64,000 nucleotides of DNA from Christensenellaceae bacterium (lineage in GTDB: Bacteria; Bacillota; Clostridia; Christensenellales; UBA1750): the NCBI GenBank assembly GCA_031280685.1, contig JAITGM010000010.1, positions 186,001 through 250,000 of the forward strand, written 5' to 3'. A model generated the notes under the pieces. It made no database searches, was not told the origin of the DNA, and saw only the letters and a list, made by a program, of their open reading frames with translations. The translations under genes were made by a program, and so were the position numbers. Of the stretch, positions 10,884 to 18,662 are shown piece after piece. Each line of letters opens with the position of its first letter. The first letter of the stretch is position 1.

Positions 10884-11348
10884 TTGAAGCTGCACATTGA
10901 GCTGAACCCCGATCTGAACGAGGATGAGATTCGCATCGTTTGCCGCAGCGCGGACGAAACGATCCGGCGGATTCAGCGCTTCATCCTGGAGCAGGCAGGC
11001 GGGCCGAAGCTGAGCTTCTTCAAGGGCAGCGAGGAATACTTCTTCCCGATGGAAGACCTGCTCTTCTTCGAAACCGAGGGCGACGCGGTCTTCGCCCACA
11101 CGGCGGGCGACGCCTTCCGGGTGCGCCAAAGGCTGTATGAGCTGGAAGAGAGCCTGCCGCGCGGCTTCATTCGCATTTCGAAGGGCTGCATCGTCAATCT
11201 CGCGCAGGTCTACTCCATCACGAAGGATTTAAGCTCCTCCAGCCTGGTGCGCTTCAGCGGCTCGCACAAGCAGGTCTTCCTCTCTCGCCGCTATTACCGG
11301 GCGCTCAAGGAGCGCCTCAACGAAAGGGGCATCGGCTATGAAACGTAG
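10884..11348 (+). CDS. LytTR-family DNA-binding regulator without receiver domain
   Basis: 154 residues. The C-terminal two thirds (about 45-150) is a LytTR domain: FFPMEDLLFFETEGDAVFAH, RLYELEESLP, FIRISKGCIVNL and the closing SRRYYRALKERL. There is no receiver; the first 45 residues form a short alpha/beta extension. The start is TTG 10884 with GGGAG ten bases before it; a nearby ATG is out of frame. It overlaps the next gene by 11 bp. Stand-alone LytTR genes paired with a small membrane protein are common in Firmicutes, where the membrane partner often antagonises the regulator. That the LiaF-like partner does this here is inference. Confidence 0.9.
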   Translation: MKLHIELNPDLNEDEIRIVCRSADETIRRIQRFILEQAGGPKLSFFKGSEEYFFPMEDLLFFETEGDAVFAHTAGDAFRVRQRLYELEESLPRGFIRISKGCIVNLAQVYSITKDLSSSSLVRFSGSHKQVFLSRRYYRALKERLNERGIGYET

Positions 11349-12060
11349 CGGAAACTGGTTCTGGGGCATCGCGCTGATCGCGGGCGCCATCTTTCTGGTG
11401 GTTTCACAGGTGAGCGGGGGCGCTCTCCTTGGCATCAACGTCTGGACGATCGTCGCCAGCGTGGCGCTCGTGGGCTTTTTCGTCCAAAATCTGGTGAGCT
11501 GGCATGGCTTCTTCGGCGTGGTCGCCCCTCTGGCAGGGCTTTACTGGCTGTTTTGGCAGCCGCTCGGCCTGCCCAGGCTCGACTTTTGGGTTTTATGGGT
11601 CAGCGCCCTGCTGCTCCTCCTCGGCCTTGAAGCCATCTTCCACCGCAGGGGCGAGCATTCCTGGCACCGTGGAGTCGACGGCAGCTGGAGCAACCATACG
11701 GGGCTGGACGAAGGCGCGGACGAGAACCACCCCTATATCCAGCTCAGCTTTGGCAAGACCAGCCGCTTCCTCCATGCGGACGCACTTGAAAGCGGCCGCC
11801 TCTCGGTGAGCTTTGGCGAACTTTTGGTGTATTTTGACCAAGTTACCCTCAAGGATGGCCAGGCACAAATCCTGATGGACGCGAGCTTTGGGACGATCCA
11901 GCTCTTCGTGCCCAAGGAGTGGGAGATCGTCAACAATTTAGGCACGGGCTTTGGCTCCATCAAGGACTTTACCTCCAAAAACCGGCCGGCAGCGGAGGCG
12001 CCGCGGCTGATCCTGAACGGCGACGCGAGCTTTGGCGAGATTCGGATCCAATACAGCTAG
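11338..12060 (+). CDS. LiaF-like membrane protein
   Basis: 240 residues. Four transmembrane segments occupy about 8-105. A soluble C-terminal half (about 125-240) is built of repeated beta turns with the recurring phrases SVSFGELLVYFDQV, DASFGTIQLFVP and DASFGEIRIQY, the pattern of the LiaF/DUF2154 cell-wall-antibiotic-response domain. LiaF restrains the LiaRS system in Bacillus. Its gene overlaps the LytTR gene, so it is probably a membrane-located sensor or inhibitor for that regulator. The domain call is good and the regulatory role is inferred. Confidence 0.8.
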   Translation: MKRSGNWFWGIALIAGAIFLVVSQVSGGALLGINVWTIVASVALVGFFVQNLVSWHGFFGVVAPLAGLYWLFWQPLGLPRLDFWVLWVSALLLLLGLEAIFHRRGEHSWHRGVDGSWSNHTGLDEGADENHPYIQLSFGKTSRFLHADALESGRLSVSFGELLVYFDQVTLKDGQAQILMDASFGTIQLFVPKEWEIVNNLGTGFGSIKDFTSKNRPAAEAPRLILNGDASFGEIRIQYS

Positions 12061-12766: not shown

Positions 12767-13468
12767 ATGGCGGAAAAACCAAAGGGAACGCAGCCCTCTG
12801 ACGAGATCGACCGCAGCCAGATCTGGGGCCCTTCCCCGCCCGCGCTCGGCCCAGACGCAGACGCTTCCCCACCGCCGCTCATCACGCTGAGCAAGGTCGA
12901 AAACGAGATCCTGGCCAAGTCCTACCCAGGCAAGAAGCGCTACCCAAGGTCGGTCGTCCCGGTTTCGGGCGGCCAGGCCGCCGATCCTGCCCGCGAGCTG
13001 CGGAACCTCCTCATCAAGGCCGGGGTTTTGGCGCTTTCGCTCTTCCTGCTCTTCGGCTTCGTGTTCGGCTTCACGCCGATGCGCGGCGCCGGGATGTATC
13101 CAAGCTTGAAGGATGGCGACCTGATGCTGTATTACCGCCTGGGTGACCTTGGCGTGTTCGGGCAGGTCGTGCTCTATCGGGCGCAGGGCGAGGATCAGGT
13201 CGGCCGGATCGTCGCCGTGGCGGGCGACGCGGTGGCCTTCAGCGAAAACGGCCAGTTCCTCTTAAACGGAGCCGTTCAGCAAGAGGCCGTATTTTACCCA
13301 AGCTACGCGGGCGACCTTGCGCCCTACCCCCTTACGGTGCCAGAAGGCAGCGTGTTCATTCTGGGTGACGGGCGCGAAAACGCGCTGGATTCCCGCGATT
13401 TCGGCCCCATTTCAATCAAAGAAATCAAGGGAAGGGCCGTTACGGTCTTCCGCCGCCGCCAAATTTAG
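12767..13468 (+). CDS. SipA-like, catalytically dead signal-peptidase homologue
   Basis: 233 residues from ATG 12767; an upstream in-frame ATG at 12680 lies inside the -10 element. A proline-rich cytoplasmic N-terminus (about 1-80) precedes one membrane helix (about 83-102) and a signal-peptidase-I fold. Box B reads MRGAGMYPSL, with Gly109 where the catalytic Ser stands (normally GSSMYPT). Box D reads QVGRIVAVAGDAV, with Gly146 in place of the catalytic Lys. Box E (GDGRENALDSRDFGPI) is well kept. Loss of both catalytic residues with fold retention is the hallmark of streptococcal SipA/LepA, a pilus-assembly chaperone. First gene of the pilus operon. Confidence 0.85.
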   Translation: MAEKPKGTQPSDEIDRSQIWGPSPPALGPDADASPPPLITLSKVENEILAKSYPGKKRYPRSVVPVSGGQAADPARELRNLLIKAGVLALSLFLLFGFVFGFTPMRGAGMYPSLKDGDLMLYYRLGDLGVFGQVVLYRAQGEDQVGRIVAVAGDAVAFSENGQFLLNGAVQQEAVFYPSYAGDLAPYPLTVPEGSVFILGDGRENALDSRDFGPISIKEIKGRAVTVFRRRQI

Positions 13469-13564
13469 CTTTTATTCACCTCGCTGATACCGCCCATTCC
13501 CGCGTCATACGCCGCGGAATCGGTCTTCACCCAATCCTTCCCCTTTTGAAAGGAGGAATCCGAA

Positions 13565-14884
13565 ATGAAAAGGCGCATTTCCATCCTGGCCGGGCTGCTC
13601 TGCCTAACAATTCTTGGCCTTGGCCTGCTAAGCACGGCCGGGGCGATCGTTTTGCCAAACACAGGGGCCACTATTTTCCCCGCCGACGCGTCCGTCGCCG
13701 TTAAGGCCTTTACCGACAGTTTCTCAAACGCGGCAAACCCCCTTAACCTAACGGAAAAGAGCAGCGGAGACTATCCCTTCCAATACGCCGCGGCGCTAGA
13801 CATGGCCCAGGTCTGGACCGCGTTCAATATGGCGAAGCTCCTCTATACCGTCACGCCCAACGGCACGCCCTGGAACGAAGTGCTGATGGCCGGCTATCTG
13901 AACTTGACCCTGACCCTGGATCCCCTGGTGACGGTGGACGCAAGCGAGTTCAGCATAGCCAAGGTGCAGGCGGCCTACGATGCCGCAAATAACGACGGCG
14001 GAGCTGGCACCGCCTTCATGGCCTACTGGAAGGTGAACTCGGCCAATTACAACAGCGCCGCCCACACCCTGGCGGTGCAACTGCAGCTGTTTAACCTAAG
14101 CGGCATCGCCCCCGCGGCGCCCGATAACCAATGGGTCTTGGCTTCCTCCTTCGACTCCGGCTCCGTCCAGCCCCCCATGCTCTATGTGGCGACGCCGAGC
14201 GGCGCGCTGAAGGTGGCTTCTGGCGATTTCGCGGTTGGGGGCAGCTTTGCCACCGTTAGCGCACTGGAGGGCGACTTCGTATTCGGCATCCTTCGCAACA
14301 GCGCTATTCATATCGCCGCGACCATCAGCGAAGGCACGGTGAACATGGTCGCGGCACCGAACCTGACCATCGTAGATGATTATGGCGACACGGCAGACCG
14401 CATTTTGGTCATCCCGCGGGTGGGCAACACCGGCGAGGGCGGCAATATGAGTTGGACCCGCGCCATCAGGCTGCAAACGGGCGGCGTGGATCTGACCAGC
14501 GCCCAGATTGCGAACGTAACCTGGGCGGTCGCCAATATCGTGGGCTTTGAGGGCAAAACCGCGGCGATTACGGCCACGAACGGCAGCGCGGTGGTGAACG
14601 GCCAGCGCTCCGGCATCGCGACGCTGACCGCGACCTACAACGGCGCGACCGCCTCCATCGACGTGGTGGTTCCGGGCGACGTGAACCGAAACGGCAACGT
14701 GAATTCGGCCGACGCTTCCATCATACGCGACCGATTCAGCGGGCAGACCTTCGCCCAAATCGGCGTGATGGTCGATCAATACACCGACTTTCTTGCCGAT
14801 TTGAACTGTAACGGCAACATTAACAGCGCGGACTCGGCCATCATACGGGATATGTTCAGCGCCGCTCTCGTGCCATCGAACTAA
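13565..14884 (+). CDS. Secreted dockerin-domain protein, putative pilus component
   Basis: 439 residues. Signal peptide to about residue 27. A beta-rich region (about 30-340) of unknown family contains LNLTLTLDPLVTVDASEFS, faintly cohesin-like, and a small Ig-like end (about 345-375). The C-terminus (about 377-439) is a type I dockerin: two Ca-binding segments GDVNRNGNVNSADASIIRD and ADLNCNGNINSADSAIIRD with the D-x-N-x-N-G-x-V/I-N-x-x-D spacing. There is no sortase signal, so it must be held non-covalently, presumably by a cohesin. AAAGGAGG precedes ATG 13565. A dockerin inside a sortase-pilus operon is unusual; its partner is unproven. Confidence 0.8.
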   Translation: MKRRISILAGLLCLTILGLGLLSTAGAIVLPNTGATIFPADASVAVKAFTDSFSNAANPLNLTEKSSGDYPFQYAAALDMAQVWTAFNMAKLLYTVTPNGTPWNEVLMAGYLNLTLTLDPLVTVDASEFSIAKVQAAYDAANNDGGAGTAFMAYWKVNSANYNSAAHTLAVQLQLFNLSGIAPAAPDNQWVLASSFDSGSVQPPMLYVATPSGALKVASGDFAVGGSFATVSALEGDFVFGILRNSAIHIAATISEGTVNMVAAPNLTIVDDYGDTADRILVIPRVGNTGEGGNMSWTRAIRLQTGGVDLTSAQIANVTWAVANIVGFEGKTAAITATNGSAVVNGQRSGIATLTATYNGATASIDVVVPGDVNRNGNVNSADASIIRDRFSGQTFAQIGVMVDQYTDFLADLNCNGNINSADSAIIRDMFSAALVPSN

Positions 14885-14929
14885 TCGGGGCAGTGCGACT
14901 CCAAAGAGAAAGAGGAGGCTGATCTACAA

Positions 14930-16744
14930 ATGAGAAAAAGGCTTAAACTGGGTTTGGCCCTGTTCTTGGCACTGGGGCTGCTCTTTAGCGCCCTGCCGCT
15001 CGCTTTTGCGGTGCCTGGCGATCACGGGACGATCACCGGCACGCAAACCCAAATCGCGGCGCGCGGGGCAAGCGCGAGCTTGACCTTCACACACACAGCC
15101 GCGGGCGGGAATGCGTTCAAGATCTTCGAAATGCTCTACATCTACGACCCGTCGCTGGCCACCTTCAATGGTTTCGGCGCGGCAACGAACGCCGCCGTAA
15201 AAGTGGCAGACTTCCCTGACATCGCCGGGCTGAATGCCACCAACAACGCCATCCCCGCAGGCATGAAGGTCATCTTGGTCGGCGATGATACGTCGCTGAA
15301 CTCGATTACGACGGTTTTGAACTTCACCAACATCCTCCCTACCACGGGGGATACCTTCACGGTCACCGCCATCCCCCGGCAATACGGCCTCAACGGCAAC
15401 GGCACGCTGAACGGCTGGGGCTATGCCTACAACAACAGCTACGACGAGCTGCCCGTGGTCGGCAACCAGATCAACATGACCAACGCCAACGGCGTCGTCA
15501 CGCTGCAGGGCGGCGGTTCCACCGAGGTTTCGGTCGCGGTCACGCCTAAGACCTCCACCGTGGCCCCAGGCGGCACCAAAAACTTCAGCGCCACCGTCGG
15601 AAACGACGGCATCGCGCCAGATAACGGCGTAACCTGGGCCCTCAGCGGCGGCCCCTACAAGTCGGGCACCAGCATCGACGCCAGCACCGGCGTGCTAACG
15701 GTGGATGCCACCGAAACCGTGGGCATCATCATCACCGTCACCGCCACCTCGAAGAAGGATAACACCAAGTCCGACACGGGCAGCGCCACGGTTTCCACGC
15801 TCAGCGCCAATAGCATCATCCTTCAGGCGCTCAAGGTTTGGCGCAACGGTTCGGATCAAGTCATTACAGACCCCGTGAGCGACGTGAGCACGATCAGGCT
15901 GGCAGCATTGGGCGGCGCGCCCATGCCGTCCGGCGCCACGGGCAGTCCGCTCGCCCTAAACGGCACGGTCACAGGCGCGGGCACGGTCGACTTCCCCCAA
16001 ATCAGCTACACGGCGGCGGGCGCCTACTTCTATAGACTGACGGAGCTCGTTCCCGGCACCCCCAACCCCTATGTGAGCTACGACAGCCACTATGTCATCG
16101 CCCGCGTGGATGTGGTCAACGGCGCCGCGCCCGGCGAGTTCGTCGTCACCGTCAGCTATTACCCCAACGGCGTGCTCGATAACGAGAGCGCCCCCACAAC
16201 CGTGACGCTTCCGCAAGGCAGCGCAGGGAAAGACAATACCTTCACCAACCGCTACGATAGCAACAACCTCATCGTTTCCAAGGTCGTCACGGGCAACAAC
16301 GGCGACCAGACCAAGGATTTCAGCTTCACGGTTCAGTTCTCGCAAAACGGAGACTACATCTGGGAAAAGAAGCAAGGCGCCACTTCCATCACCAGCGGCA
16401 CGACGAACAGCGTCAATCCCTACAGCTTCACGCTCAAGCACGGCCAGTCCATCGAGTTCACCGGCCTGCCCACGGGCGTGACCTGGACGGTGACCGAAAG
16501 CGCCGAAACCAACTACAGCACCACCGTGCGCGTAAACAACGGCGCGGCCACCCAGGGCTTGATCGCGAGCGGCACCATCAGCAGCACGACCGCCCGGGCG
16601 GCCTACACCAACGAGAGCAATTTCACGCCGCCCACGGGCATCACGGCGGATGATCTTCCCTTCATCGTGCTGGGCGCGGCGCTTCTTTTGGGGCTTGCCG
16701 CCTTCCTGATCCTCCGCGGCAAGAAGCGCTACACGCGCGTGTAA
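14930..16744 (+). CDS. Major pilin-like surface protein (FctA-type isopeptide domains)
   Basis: 604 residues. Signal peptide to about 29. N-terminal beta-sandwich (about 32-195) with FKIFEMLYIYDPSLATFNGF, reminiscent of a cohesin. Big_2-type domain (about 197-290). Streptococcal pilin isopeptide-linkage domain (about 292-450, with the YFYRLTEL E-box). A second prealbumin-like domain (about 450-562, WTVTESAE). Sorting signal TPPTG (566-570), hydrophobic helix and basic tail. Glu in the E-boxes suggests Lys-Asn isopeptide cross-links. TPPTG fits the (S/P)PxTG-like preference known for clostridial class B sortases and is close to the VPPTG of Cpa. It abuts the sortase gene with no gap. Confidence 0.85.
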   Translation: MRKRLKLGLALFLALGLLFSALPLAFAVPGDHGTITGTQTQIAARGASASLTFTHTAAGGNAFKIFEMLYIYDPSLATFNGFGAATNAAVKVADFPDIAGLNATNNAIPAGMKVILVGDDTSLNSITTVLNFTNILPTTGDTFTVTAIPRQYGLNGNGTLNGWGYAYNNSYDELPVVGNQINMTNANGVVTLQGGGSTEVSVAVTPKTSTVAPGGTKNFSATVGNDGIAPDNGVTWALSGGPYKSGTSIDASTGVLTVDATETVGIIITVTATSKKDNTKSDTGSATVSTLSANSIILQALKVWRNGSDQVITDPVSDVSTIRLAALGGAPMPSGATGSPLALNGTVTGAGTVDFPQISYTAAGAYFYRLTELVPGTPNPYVSYDSHYVIARVDVVNGAAPGEFVVTVSYYPNGVLDNESAPTTVTLPQGSAGKDNTFTNRYDSNNLIVSKVVTGNNGDQTKDFSFTVQFSQNGDYIWEKKQGATSITSGTTNSVNPYSFTLKHGQSIEFTGLPTGVTWTVTESAETNYSTTVRVNNGAATQGLIASGTISSTTARAAYTNESNFTPPTGITADDLPFIVLGAALLLGLAAFLILRGKKRYTRV

Positions 16745-17497
16745 ATGGCAACGAAGAGGCGCCCGGGGGCAGGAGGATTGACGCGCGCCCTGAATCGGGT
16801 TTTCGACTGGGGGCTGCTTCTCCTGCTCCTCACCGGCCTTCTCTATTGCGGCTATGCCCTTTGGGATACCCGCGATCTCTACGCGCGGGAGGCCTACGCG
16901 CGCGAAAAGACGCAGGTCTTTAAGCCTAGCGAGGGCGACGAAGAGAACTTGAGCCTGAGCGAAGCGGTCGCCTTAAACGCCGACGTGTGCGGCTGGCTGG
17001 TCATCGAAAACACCAGGATTGACTACCTTCTCGTGCAGGGGAACGATAACCAGTTCTATTTGAACTACGACCCGCTTCGGAATTTCTCCATCGCGGGCAG
17101 CATCTTCCTCGACCACCGCTGCAAAAGGGACTTTAGCGGCTTTCATTCCATCCTCTACGGCCACCACATGAGCAACGGCTCGATGTTCAGCGATTTAGAA
17201 AAGTTCGGCGACGAGGCCTTCTTCAATGCCAACGAGCGCGGCTGGCTCCATCTGCCGGGCGCCACGCACAGGCTGCAGATCCTCGCCTACCTCACCGTGG
17301 ACGCCTACGATTCCCCGGTCTTCAACCCCTTCATCGAATCGCCCGAGGAAAGGCAGGCCTTTTTGGGCTACCTTCGCGAAAACGCGCGCCATCTCCGCGA
17401 TACCGGGCTGGATTTGGACGCGAAGCTGCTCACCCTTTCGACCTGCTCATCGGATTTCACCAACGCCAGGTCGGTTCTCATCGCGCGCATTCTTTGA
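16745..17497 (+). CDS. Class B sortase
   Basis: 250 residues. One N-terminal membrane helix (about 22-42) puts the catalytic domain outside. Catalytic His lies in LYGHHMSNG, catalytic Cys in TLSTC (near residue 234), and the Arg in NARSVLIARI. The length and TLSTC box are class B rather than the class C usual for Gram-positive pili. FCT-3 pili of Streptococcus pyogenes also use a class-B-like enzyme together with SipA and FctA, the same gene company as here. ATG 16745 follows the pilin stop directly. It should polymerise or anchor the TPPTG and PPKTG proteins on either side. Confidence 0.93.
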   Translation: MATKRRPGAGGLTRALNRVFDWGLLLLLLTGLLYCGYALWDTRDLYAREAYAREKTQVFKPSEGDEENLSLSEAVALNADVCGWLVIENTRIDYLLVQGNDNQFYLNYDPLRNFSIAGSIFLDHRCKRDFSGFHSILYGHHMSNGSMFSDLEKFGDEAFFNANERGWLHLPGATHRLQILAYLTVDAYDSPVFNPFIESPEERQAFLGYLRENARHLRDTGLDLDAKLLTLSTCSSDFTNARSVLIARIL

Positions 17498-17531
17498 AGC
17501 CCCAACGCCCAGCCGAAAGGAGGCGCAGCCT

Positions 17532-18617
17532 CTGAAGCTCATCAGGTTAAAGGCGCCTTTTTCACTCCTTTTGGCGCTTCTTTTCGCGCTTGTGCCGCTC
17601 TTTTTGGGCGCGGCGCCCGCCAGGGCGGCTTCCAGCGTCGCCATCGGCGGCTTTACCCTCGTCAAGCGGGTGAGCGGCTCCCCCGGCGCGAGCGAAACCT
17701 TCCGCTTCGAGCTTCGCGGAGCCGATCCCTCCACCCCCATGCCCTCGGGCAGCACGGGGAACGTCAAGCAGGTCAGCCAAAGCGGCGCGGGGGAGCAGAG
17801 CCTGGGCCAAATCAGCTATGACGCGGCCGGAACCTACCGCTATACCCTTCGGGAAATCGCGGGCACGGCCCCCGGCTACAGCTACGATTCCACGGTCTAC
17901 AACATCACCGTCTATGTCAACGCTCCGGGGAGCGGCCTGGCGGCCACGGTCGTCTACGAAAAGCAGGGGAGCCCGGGCGTTAAGGAGCTTCATCTACTCT
18001 TTCAAAACGCCTACTCGTCCCCCACCCCAATCCCCAGCGCCAGCCCGACCCCCACACCCCTCCCCGGCACGGGCGCGCTAACCCTCACAAAGACGGTGAC
18101 GGGCAGCCAGGGCGAGCTAAACCGCGAATTCCACTTCACGGTCTATCTCTTCGGCGCGGCGGGCAGCTACCCCTATAGCGGCAGCAAAAGCGGCACGCTC
18201 GCAAGCGGCGGCGTGATCGCCCTCAAACACGGCGAAAGCGTCACGATTACGGGCCTGCCCGTCGGCACCAGCTACAGCGTCACCGAAGCCGAGGCCAACC
18301 AGGAGGGCTACCTCAGCACGGCGAGCGGCGCTGGCGCGATCATCGTCGCCGGCGGCTCTACGGCAGCCTTCGTCAACCAGCGCGGGGCCACGGCACTGCC
18401 CACGGCTACGCCCACGTTTTCGTTTGCGCCCACGGCCACGCCTTCGGGCGGGGGGAGCGGCGGGTCTGGGGGTGGCGGCGGCGGTTCCGGCGGCTCGTCC
18501 ACCCCGCCCAAGACCGGGGACGCGTTCCCTCCTCTCTTCGGCGCGCTGGGCCTGGCCCTCCCGCTGATGCTGATCCTCGTCCTCACCCGGCGAAGGAAGG
18601 CCCCGCCCAGGGCTTAA
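17532..18617 (+). CDS. Minor pilin-like protein with PPKTG anchor; probable CTG start
   Basis: 361 residues. AAAGGAGG is followed eight bases later by CTG 17532; no ATG, GTG or TTG fits, so a rare CTG start is likely. Signal peptide to about 34 (GAAPARAAS). FctA-type isopeptide domain (about 36-165) with YRYTLREI E-box. Pro/Ser/Thr linker (PTPIPSASPTPTPLP). A second prealbumin-like domain (about 183-275) resembles that of the major pilin (ALKHGESVTITGLPVG). Then a PT linker, a long Gly/Ser spacer, the sorting motif PPKTG, a helix and RRR tail. The flexible linkers suggest a basal or tip subunit that spans the wall. Last gene of the operon. Confidence 0.83.
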   Translation: MKLIRLKAPFSLLLALLFALVPLFLGAAPARAASSVAIGGFTLVKRVSGSPGASETFRFELRGADPSTPMPSGSTGNVKQVSQSGAGEQSLGQISYDAAGTYRYTLREIAGTAPGYSYDSTVYNITVYVNAPGSGLAATVVYEKQGSPGVKELHLLFQNAYSSPTPIPSASPTPTPLPGTGALTLTKTVTGSQGELNREFHFTVYLFGAAGSYPYSGSKSGTLASGGVIALKHGESVTITGLPVGTSYSVTEAEANQEGYLSTASGAGAIIVAGGSTAAFVNQRGATALPTATPTFSFAPTATPSGGGSGGSGGGGGGSGGSSTPPKTGDAFPPLFGALGLALPLMLILVLTRRRKAPPRA

Positions 18618-18629
18618 AACGCACCCACC

Positions 18630-18662
18630 CGGCGGCGATGCACGAGCGCGCCGCCGTTTTTT
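18630..18662 (+). terminator. Terminator of the pilus operon
   Basis: Stem CGGCGGCG paired with CGCCGCCG, loop of about ten bases, then six T, starting 12 bp after the last pilus gene. Confidence 0.85.

What the first reader, a model, noticed from the sequence alone, without database searches (positions are those of the whole stretch)
12767..18617. FCT-3-like pilus operon built around a catalytically dead signal peptidase
The first gene keeps the signal-peptidase fold but has Gly at both the Ser site (GAGMYPS) and the Lys site (VGRIVAVAGD). Streptococcal SipA, needed for FCT-3 pili, also lacks the Ser/Lys dyad. Here it stands with FctA-type isopeptide pilins and a class B (TLSTC) sortase, the same combination as FCT-3, in a Clostridia-type genome. 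The gene set, order and zero-gap junctions suggest a complete assembly machine.
Basis: partly seen in the sequence, partly recalled or inferred. Interest (0 to 1): 0.82.

Follow-up and report, generated by a model that had tools for sequence, protein, structure and literature searches.

The report
SipA pilus operon with a dockerin
A Clostridia bacterium carries a set of genes for building hair-like surface fibres that uses a broken signal-peptidase look-alike, as in Streptococcus, and unusually one of its proteins carries the plug half of a plug-and-socket (cohesin-dockerin) connector normally used to build cellulose-digesting complexes.

Summary
The core of the finding holds. Window 12767-13468 encodes a signal-peptidase homologue with Gly at both catalytic positions. 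Its best solved relative is S. pyogenes SipA (E 7.5e-25, against 1.6e-10 for a true SPase); it falls in one clade with SipA (98/96), apart from 15 true SPases that all keep Ser and Lys; omega 0.16. Sister operons in other Clostridia have the exact FCT-3 order adhesin-sipA-backbone-srtB-minor pilin, and C. perfringens VR-10B is a published clostridial case. So a SipA/class-B-sortase pilus is a new member of a known kind. No sortase-anchored Cpa-like adhesin is present. Instead, gene 2 (13565-14884) is a secreted protein ending in a type I dockerin, the only one in the genome, and the next gene, the backbone pilin, has an extra N-terminal domain with cohesin hallmarks. Elsewhere a dockerin gene followed directly by a membrane-anchored cohesin gene is a recurring module (7 loci). 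I propose that gene 2 docks non-covalently on the pilus. The dockerin is shown; the cohesin is only suggestive: its sequence support rests on one relative, its structural support on a biased model.

The parts
12767..13468 (+). gene 1, SipA-like signal-peptidase pseudoenzyme (233 aa; Ser->Gly, Lys->Gly; about 75-aa cytoplasmic N-terminal extension before the TM helix)
13565..14884 (+). gene 2, secreted 439-aa protein: signal peptide, unknown domain(s), C-terminal dockerin; no sortase signal
   Evidence: 66% identical partial orthologue downstream of sipA in the sister species
14672..14848 (+). type I dockerin of gene 2 (two DxNxNGxxxxxD loops: DVNRNGNVNSAD, DLNCNGNINSAD)
   Evidence: PF00404 E 4.8e-8; the only dockerin in the genome; PDB dockerins 4uyq/4uyp
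14930..16744 (+). gene 3, backbone-type pilin, 604 aa
15011..15511 (+). N-terminal domain of gene 3, candidate cohesin
   Evidence: suggestive, not proven
15503..15796 (+). Big_2-like Ig domain of gene 3
   Evidence: 35-45% identity to domains in clostridial surface proteins
15806..16249 (+). FctA/Spy0128-type isopeptide domain of gene 3 (weak)
   Evidence: TIGR03786 26 bits, below its 31.85 cut-off; Spy0128 3b2m E 7.5e-13
16262..16615 (+). DUF7601 isopeptide-type domain of gene 3
   Evidence: PF24547 E 6e-21
16625..16639 (+). sorting motif TPPTG of gene 3 (fits the (E/Q/V)(V/P)PTG consensus of class B pilus substrates except at position 1)
   Evidence: sequence; consensus from PMC3019223
16745..17497 (+). 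gene 4, class B sortase (TLSTC)
17532..18617 (+). gene 5, minor/basal pilin: FctA + DUF7601 + PPKTG anchor; likely CTG start
   Evidence: PF12892 E 1.9e-19, PF24547 E 1.8e-27; orthologue 71% identical at a contig end of the sister species
18504..18518 (+). sorting motif PPKTG of gene 5
   Evidence: sequence
18630..18662 (+). candidate intrinsic terminator: 8-bp GC stem, 11-nt loop, T6
   Evidence: by inspection; its loop exceeds the limit of the scan

Best explanation
This is a sortase-assembled pilus operon of the FCT-3 / VR-10B type. The class B sortase (gene 4) links gene 3 backbone subunits through the TPPTG signal. The catalytically dead SipA (gene 1) acts as a peptide-binding assembly factor rather than a peptidase. 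The polymer ends on gene 5 (PPKTG), which a wall-anchoring sortase attaches. In place of a covalently linked Cpa-type adhesin, the operon makes a secreted subunit (gene 2) with a C-terminal dockerin, most likely held by the N-terminal cohesin-like domain of the backbone pilin, so that it decorates or tips the fibre non-covalently. Shown: the dead dyad, SipA kinship, domain content, the single dockerin, conserved synteny. Inferred: polymerisation, SipA's role, terminal attachment. Inferred and weaker (about 0.35): docking of gene 2 on gene 3. The confidence given is for the pilus operon reading without the docking step.
For: SipA 4n31 is the best PDB hit, E 7.5e-25 against 1.6e-10 for the staphylococcal-type signal peptidase 4nv4. 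SipA-like proteins from the window, its sister species, four further genomes and S. pyogenes form one clade, 98/96. Dyad G/G in window, sister species and L078; D/G in L069 and S. pyogenes; R/G in L070. Published: Asp48/Gly85 in S. pyogenes SipA, no peptidase activity, and mutating the Asp48/Lys83 equivalents leaves polymerisation intact (PMC4049620). [quoted passage not shown] The one compared locus with an intact dyad (L072) lies with LPxTG-type surface proteins, while the dyad-lost ones lie with class B sortases. omega 0.16 for sipA and 0.22 for gene 2. The sister species keeps both ends of the operon in the same flanking context. Dockerin E 4.8e-8, the only one in the genome. The order dockerin gene -> N-terminal cohesin gene recurs in L140, L141, L142, L143, L145, L150, L153.
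Against: No experiment. No wall-anchoring sortase inside the operon (three other sortase genes lie elsewhere in the genome). No anchored tip adhesin. The cohesin call for gene 3 is not significant by Pfam, hhalign or PDB sequence search; the profile signal (Z about 5, above all 459 controls) vanishes when one relative, L140, is left out; the AlphaFold model that resembles cohesins was built on a cohesin alignment and has pLDDT 62.
Confidence: 0.8

Rival explanations
1. Same pilus, but the dockerin of gene 2 has no partner in the pilus: gene 2 is a secreted protein that binds a cohesin outside this genome, or none, and the N-terminal domain of gene 3 is an unrelated beta-sandwich, for example an adhesive domain.
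For: No Pfam cohesin in the genome even at E 1; the cohesin signal depends on one relative; adhesin domains also appear among the Foldseek hits, such as the CNM N2 domain.
Against: The only dockerin in a 97% complete genome lies directly upstream of the candidate domain, in the gene order of seven dockerin/cohesin pairs seen elsewhere; sister backbone pilins, which have no dockerin gene beside them, are shorter (326-468 aa); the best Foldseek hit is a cohesin (biased).
Confidence: 0.4
2. No pilus: the class B sortase only anchors single proteins to the wall, and SipA helps that anchoring.
For: Class B sortases are best known as anchoring enzymes; no pilin-lysine motif was identified here; nothing was tested experimentally.
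Against: Two FctA/DUF7601 proteins with different sorting signals and a SipA orthologue match polymerising operons in S. pyogenes (PMC4049620, PMC3019223) and C. perfringens (PMC8088525); pilus sortase 3psq outscores anchoring SrtBs such as 1ng5.
Confidence: 0.12
3. Gene 1 is still a peptidase that uses other residues to cut pilin signal peptides.
For: The overall fold and the DSRD box are conserved.
Against: Gly at both dyad positions in two species and in L078; in S. pyogenes SipA no peptidase activity was found and the polar residues at the site are dispensable (PMC4049620); the genome has two intact SPases.
Confidence: 0.05

Closest known systems
S. pyogenes FCT-3 pilus (cpa-sipA-fctA-srtC-fctB; SipA 4n31, Spy0129 3psq, Spy0128 3b2m)
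   Same: SipA without the Ser/Lys dyad, class B sortase, FctA-type backbone with xPTG signal, minor pilin, gene order sipA-fctA-srtC-fctB
   Different: No Cpa; a dockerin protein between sipA and fctA; Gly/Gly instead of Asp/Gly; backbone has about 265 extra N-terminal residues
Clostridium perfringens VR-10B pilus (CnaA, signal peptidase, FimA, SrtB1, FimB; PMC8088525)
   Same: Clostridial operon with a signal-peptidase homologue, class B sortase and three secreted subunits, syntenic to streptococcal loci, shown to make a pilus
   Different: Its adhesin CnaA is assigned as tip pilin by its collagen-binding domain; no dockerin reported. Whether its signal peptidase is dead was not tested here
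Non-cellulosomal dockerin/cohesin two-gene modules (L140 and others here; C. perfringens cohesins 2vo8, 2jh2)
   Same: Dockerin-ending secreted protein encoded directly before a surface-anchored protein with an N-terminal cohesin(-like) domain
   Different: There the anchor is a transmembrane helix and no sortase lies alongside; here the anchor would be a sortase pilin
Ruminococcus flavefaciens ScaE (cell-surface anchoring cohesin, structure 2zf9; sortase anchoring from general knowledge)
   Same: Would combine a cohesin with a sortase signal
   Different: ScaE is a single wall-anchored cohesin of a cellulosome, not a pilin

Membership tests
SipA (pilus signal-peptidase-like pseudoenzyme) | SPase I fold homology, closer to SipA than to SPases | tested here: met
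SipA (pilus signal-peptidase-like pseudoenzyme) | Loss of catalytic Ser and Lys | tested here: met
SipA (pilus signal-peptidase-like pseudoenzyme) | Encoded beside a backbone pilin and a class B sortase | tested here: met
SipA (pilus signal-peptidase-like pseudoenzyme) | Required for pilin polymerisation | not testable with these tools
   needs deletion or heterologous assembly
FCT-3 / class B sortase pilus | Class B pilus sortase with TLXTC | tested here: met
   (TIGR03064 3.5 bits under its cut-off)
FCT-3 / class B sortase pilus | Backbone with Spy0128-like isopeptide domains and (E/Q/V)(V/P)PTG signal | tested here: met
   TPPTG differs at position 1; FctA half of gene 3 below the model cut-off
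FCT-3 / class B sortase pilus | Cpa-type adhesin with its own sorting signal | tested here: not met
   gene 2 has no sorting signal; no other surface gene abuts the operon
FCT-3 / class B sortase pilus | Covalent pilus fibres | not testable with these tools
   needs immunoblot and electron microscopy
Type I dockerin (gene 2) | PF00404 match over cut-off with two calcium loops | tested here: met
   33.5 bits against 22.9; loops read
Cohesin (gene 3, residues 28-194) | Match to the cohesin profile | tested here: not met
   no PF00963 match; hhalign not significant
Cohesin (gene 3, residues 28-194) | Similarity to cohesins beyond shuffles and control surface domains | tested here: inconclusive
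   Z 4.6-5.6 and 0 of 459 controls with L140 in the profile; Z 1.2-2.4 without it
Cohesin (gene 3, residues 28-194) | Cohesin fold | tested here: inconclusive
   model pLDDT 62, pTM 0.63, Foldseek hits include cohesins 5nrm (rank 1) and 2vo8 (rank 3), but built on a cohesin alignment; without alignment pLDDT 35

The most novel reading that the evidence does not exclude
A sortase-built pilus whose functional subunit is not polymerised covalently but plugged onto each backbone pilin by a cohesin-dockerin pair, a natural merger of the pilus and the cellulosome connector.
Probability: 0.33. Interest if true: 0.82.

Novelty: new variant of a known kind. Interest (0 to 1): 0.52.

Why it matters
It shows that loss of the SipA catalytic dyad is shared between streptococci and several Clostridia families and goes together with class B pilus sortases, which makes the unsolved question of what SipA does testable by comparison. 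If the dockerin docks on the pilin, it would be, as far as I found in open-access papers, the first natural cohesin-dockerin pilus and a ready display scaffold.

Tried and rejected
AlphaFold on the gene 3 N-terminal domain without an alignment failed (pLDDT 35). The generic cohesin profile gave Z 3.2 against shuffles, but six of 168 other surface segments scored as high, so I did not claim it; the better result with module cohesins proved to hang on L140. Searches for homologues of the gene 3 N-terminal domain in 297 genomes of the order, 341 of the class, viral contigs and plasmids found only the Big-like domain or chance matches. G000:C44 looked like a second weak hit next to a sortase but is a Cna/SpaA-type protein on what looks like a conjugative element. 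A peptidase role for gene 1 was considered and rejected.

Full report
Observation. Five genes lie on the + strand from 12767 to 18617. Gene 1 is a PF10502 protein (E 5e-20). Aligned with the genome's two own signal peptidases and 13 others, it has Gly where all have Ser and Gly where all have Lys. The sister species (L068, 82% identical) has the same two glycines, with omega 0.16 between the two genes, so it is a maintained pseudoenzyme and not a decaying gene. The 'zero-gap' claim is true only between genes 3 and 4; the other intergenic gaps are 96, 45 and 34 bp. Gene 5 has no ATG near its signal peptide; a CTG at 17532 follows AGGAGG.

Kinship. The best solved relative of gene 1 is S. pyogenes SipA (E 7.5e-25), far above a true signal peptidase (1.6e-10). 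In a tree of 23 sequences, the SipA-like proteins of the window, the sister species, four other genomes (L069, L070, L078, and L071 plus L072 of one genome) and S. pyogenes form one group, 98/96. Within it the dyad is G/G (window, sister, L078), D/G (L069, S. pyogenes), R/G (L070), S/R (L071) and intact S/K (L072). In S. pyogenes the residues are Asp48 and Gly85, no peptidase activity was found, and SipA is essential for polymerisation (PMC4049620).

Operon type. L069, L070 and L078 have the order published for FCT-3, adhesin-sipA-backbone-class B sortase-minor pilin (order). L071 has the adhesin downstream. L072, with the intact dyad, lies instead beside LPxTG-type proteins. C. perfringens VR-10B is a published clostridial operon of this kind with a visualised pilus (PMC8088525). 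The window's sortase matches TIGR03064 at 150.2 bits, just under its 153.75 cut-off, and Spy0129 3psq at E 2.4e-31. Genes 3 and 5 carry DUF7601 and FctA-type domains and the signals TPPTG and PPKTG. The sister species keeps sipA and the start of gene 2 at one contig end, and the end of gene 5, followed by the same downstream genes, at another; what lies between was not assembled.

Gene 2 is not a pilin. It has a signal peptide, no sorting signal, and ends in a dockerin (E 4.8e-8), the only one in the 97% complete genome. There is no Cpa-like anchored adhesin. The next gene, the backbone pilin, is 604 aa where sister backbones are 326-468 aa. Its extra N-terminal part is a Big-like domain preceded by a domain (residues 28-194) with the look of a cohesin: YDPSLATFNGF and VGDDTSLNSITTVLNF align with YDSSVLQFTGG and YGGDKSVNSLSCTLNF of a cohesin in L140.

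Context for the docking idea. In a survey of 297 genomes of the order, the arrangement 'dockerin-ending secreted protein, then a gene with an N-terminal cohesin and a TM anchor' was seen in seven loci (L140-L143, L145, L150, L153). The window repeats this order with a pilin as the second gene. Against it: no Pfam cohesin, hhalign not significant, the profile score stands above 200 shuffles and 459 control segments only when L140 is in the profile, and the AlphaFold model (pLDDT 62, pTM 0.63) that resembles cohesins 5nrm and 2vo8 was made with a cohesin alignment. I therefore treat docking as a hypothesis at about one in three. No natural cohesin-dockerin pilus turned up in three literature searches, which cover open-access papers only.

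Verdict. A new member of the SipA/class B sortase pilus kind, with a real and unusual variation: a dockerin-bearing secreted protein in place of the anchored adhesin.

Noticed in passing
L073:6620-12352 (G000:C44, - strand): A 1,910-aa open frame joins a Cna/SpaA-type surface protein with a sorting-like signal (VPQTSDD), a TM segment and a sortase domain (TLSTC) in one protein, on what looks like a conjugative element (VirB4-like and NlpC/P60-like genes beside it).
   Followed up: partly
L140:7652-10311, L141:7085-10139, L142:1-2496, L143:6913-10356, L145, L150, L153: Recurring two-gene module: a dockerin-ending secreted protein (an N-acetylmuramoyl-L-alanine amidase in L140) directly followed by a gene with an N-terminal cohesin and a C-terminal TM anchor, in several families of the order.
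   Followed up: partly
window 17532: Gene 5 has no usable ATG/GTG/TTG near its signal peptide; a CTG start behind AGGAGG fits best.
   Followed up: no
L078:13697-14347: A catalytically intact signal peptidase gene (SMEPS, VKR) follows the SipA pilus operon, so dead and live copies stand in one locus.
   Followed up: no
window 10884-12060: A LytTR-type regulator and a LiaF-like protein lie upstream of the operon; the LiaF-like gene is in the same place in the sister species; possible regulators.
   Followed up: no
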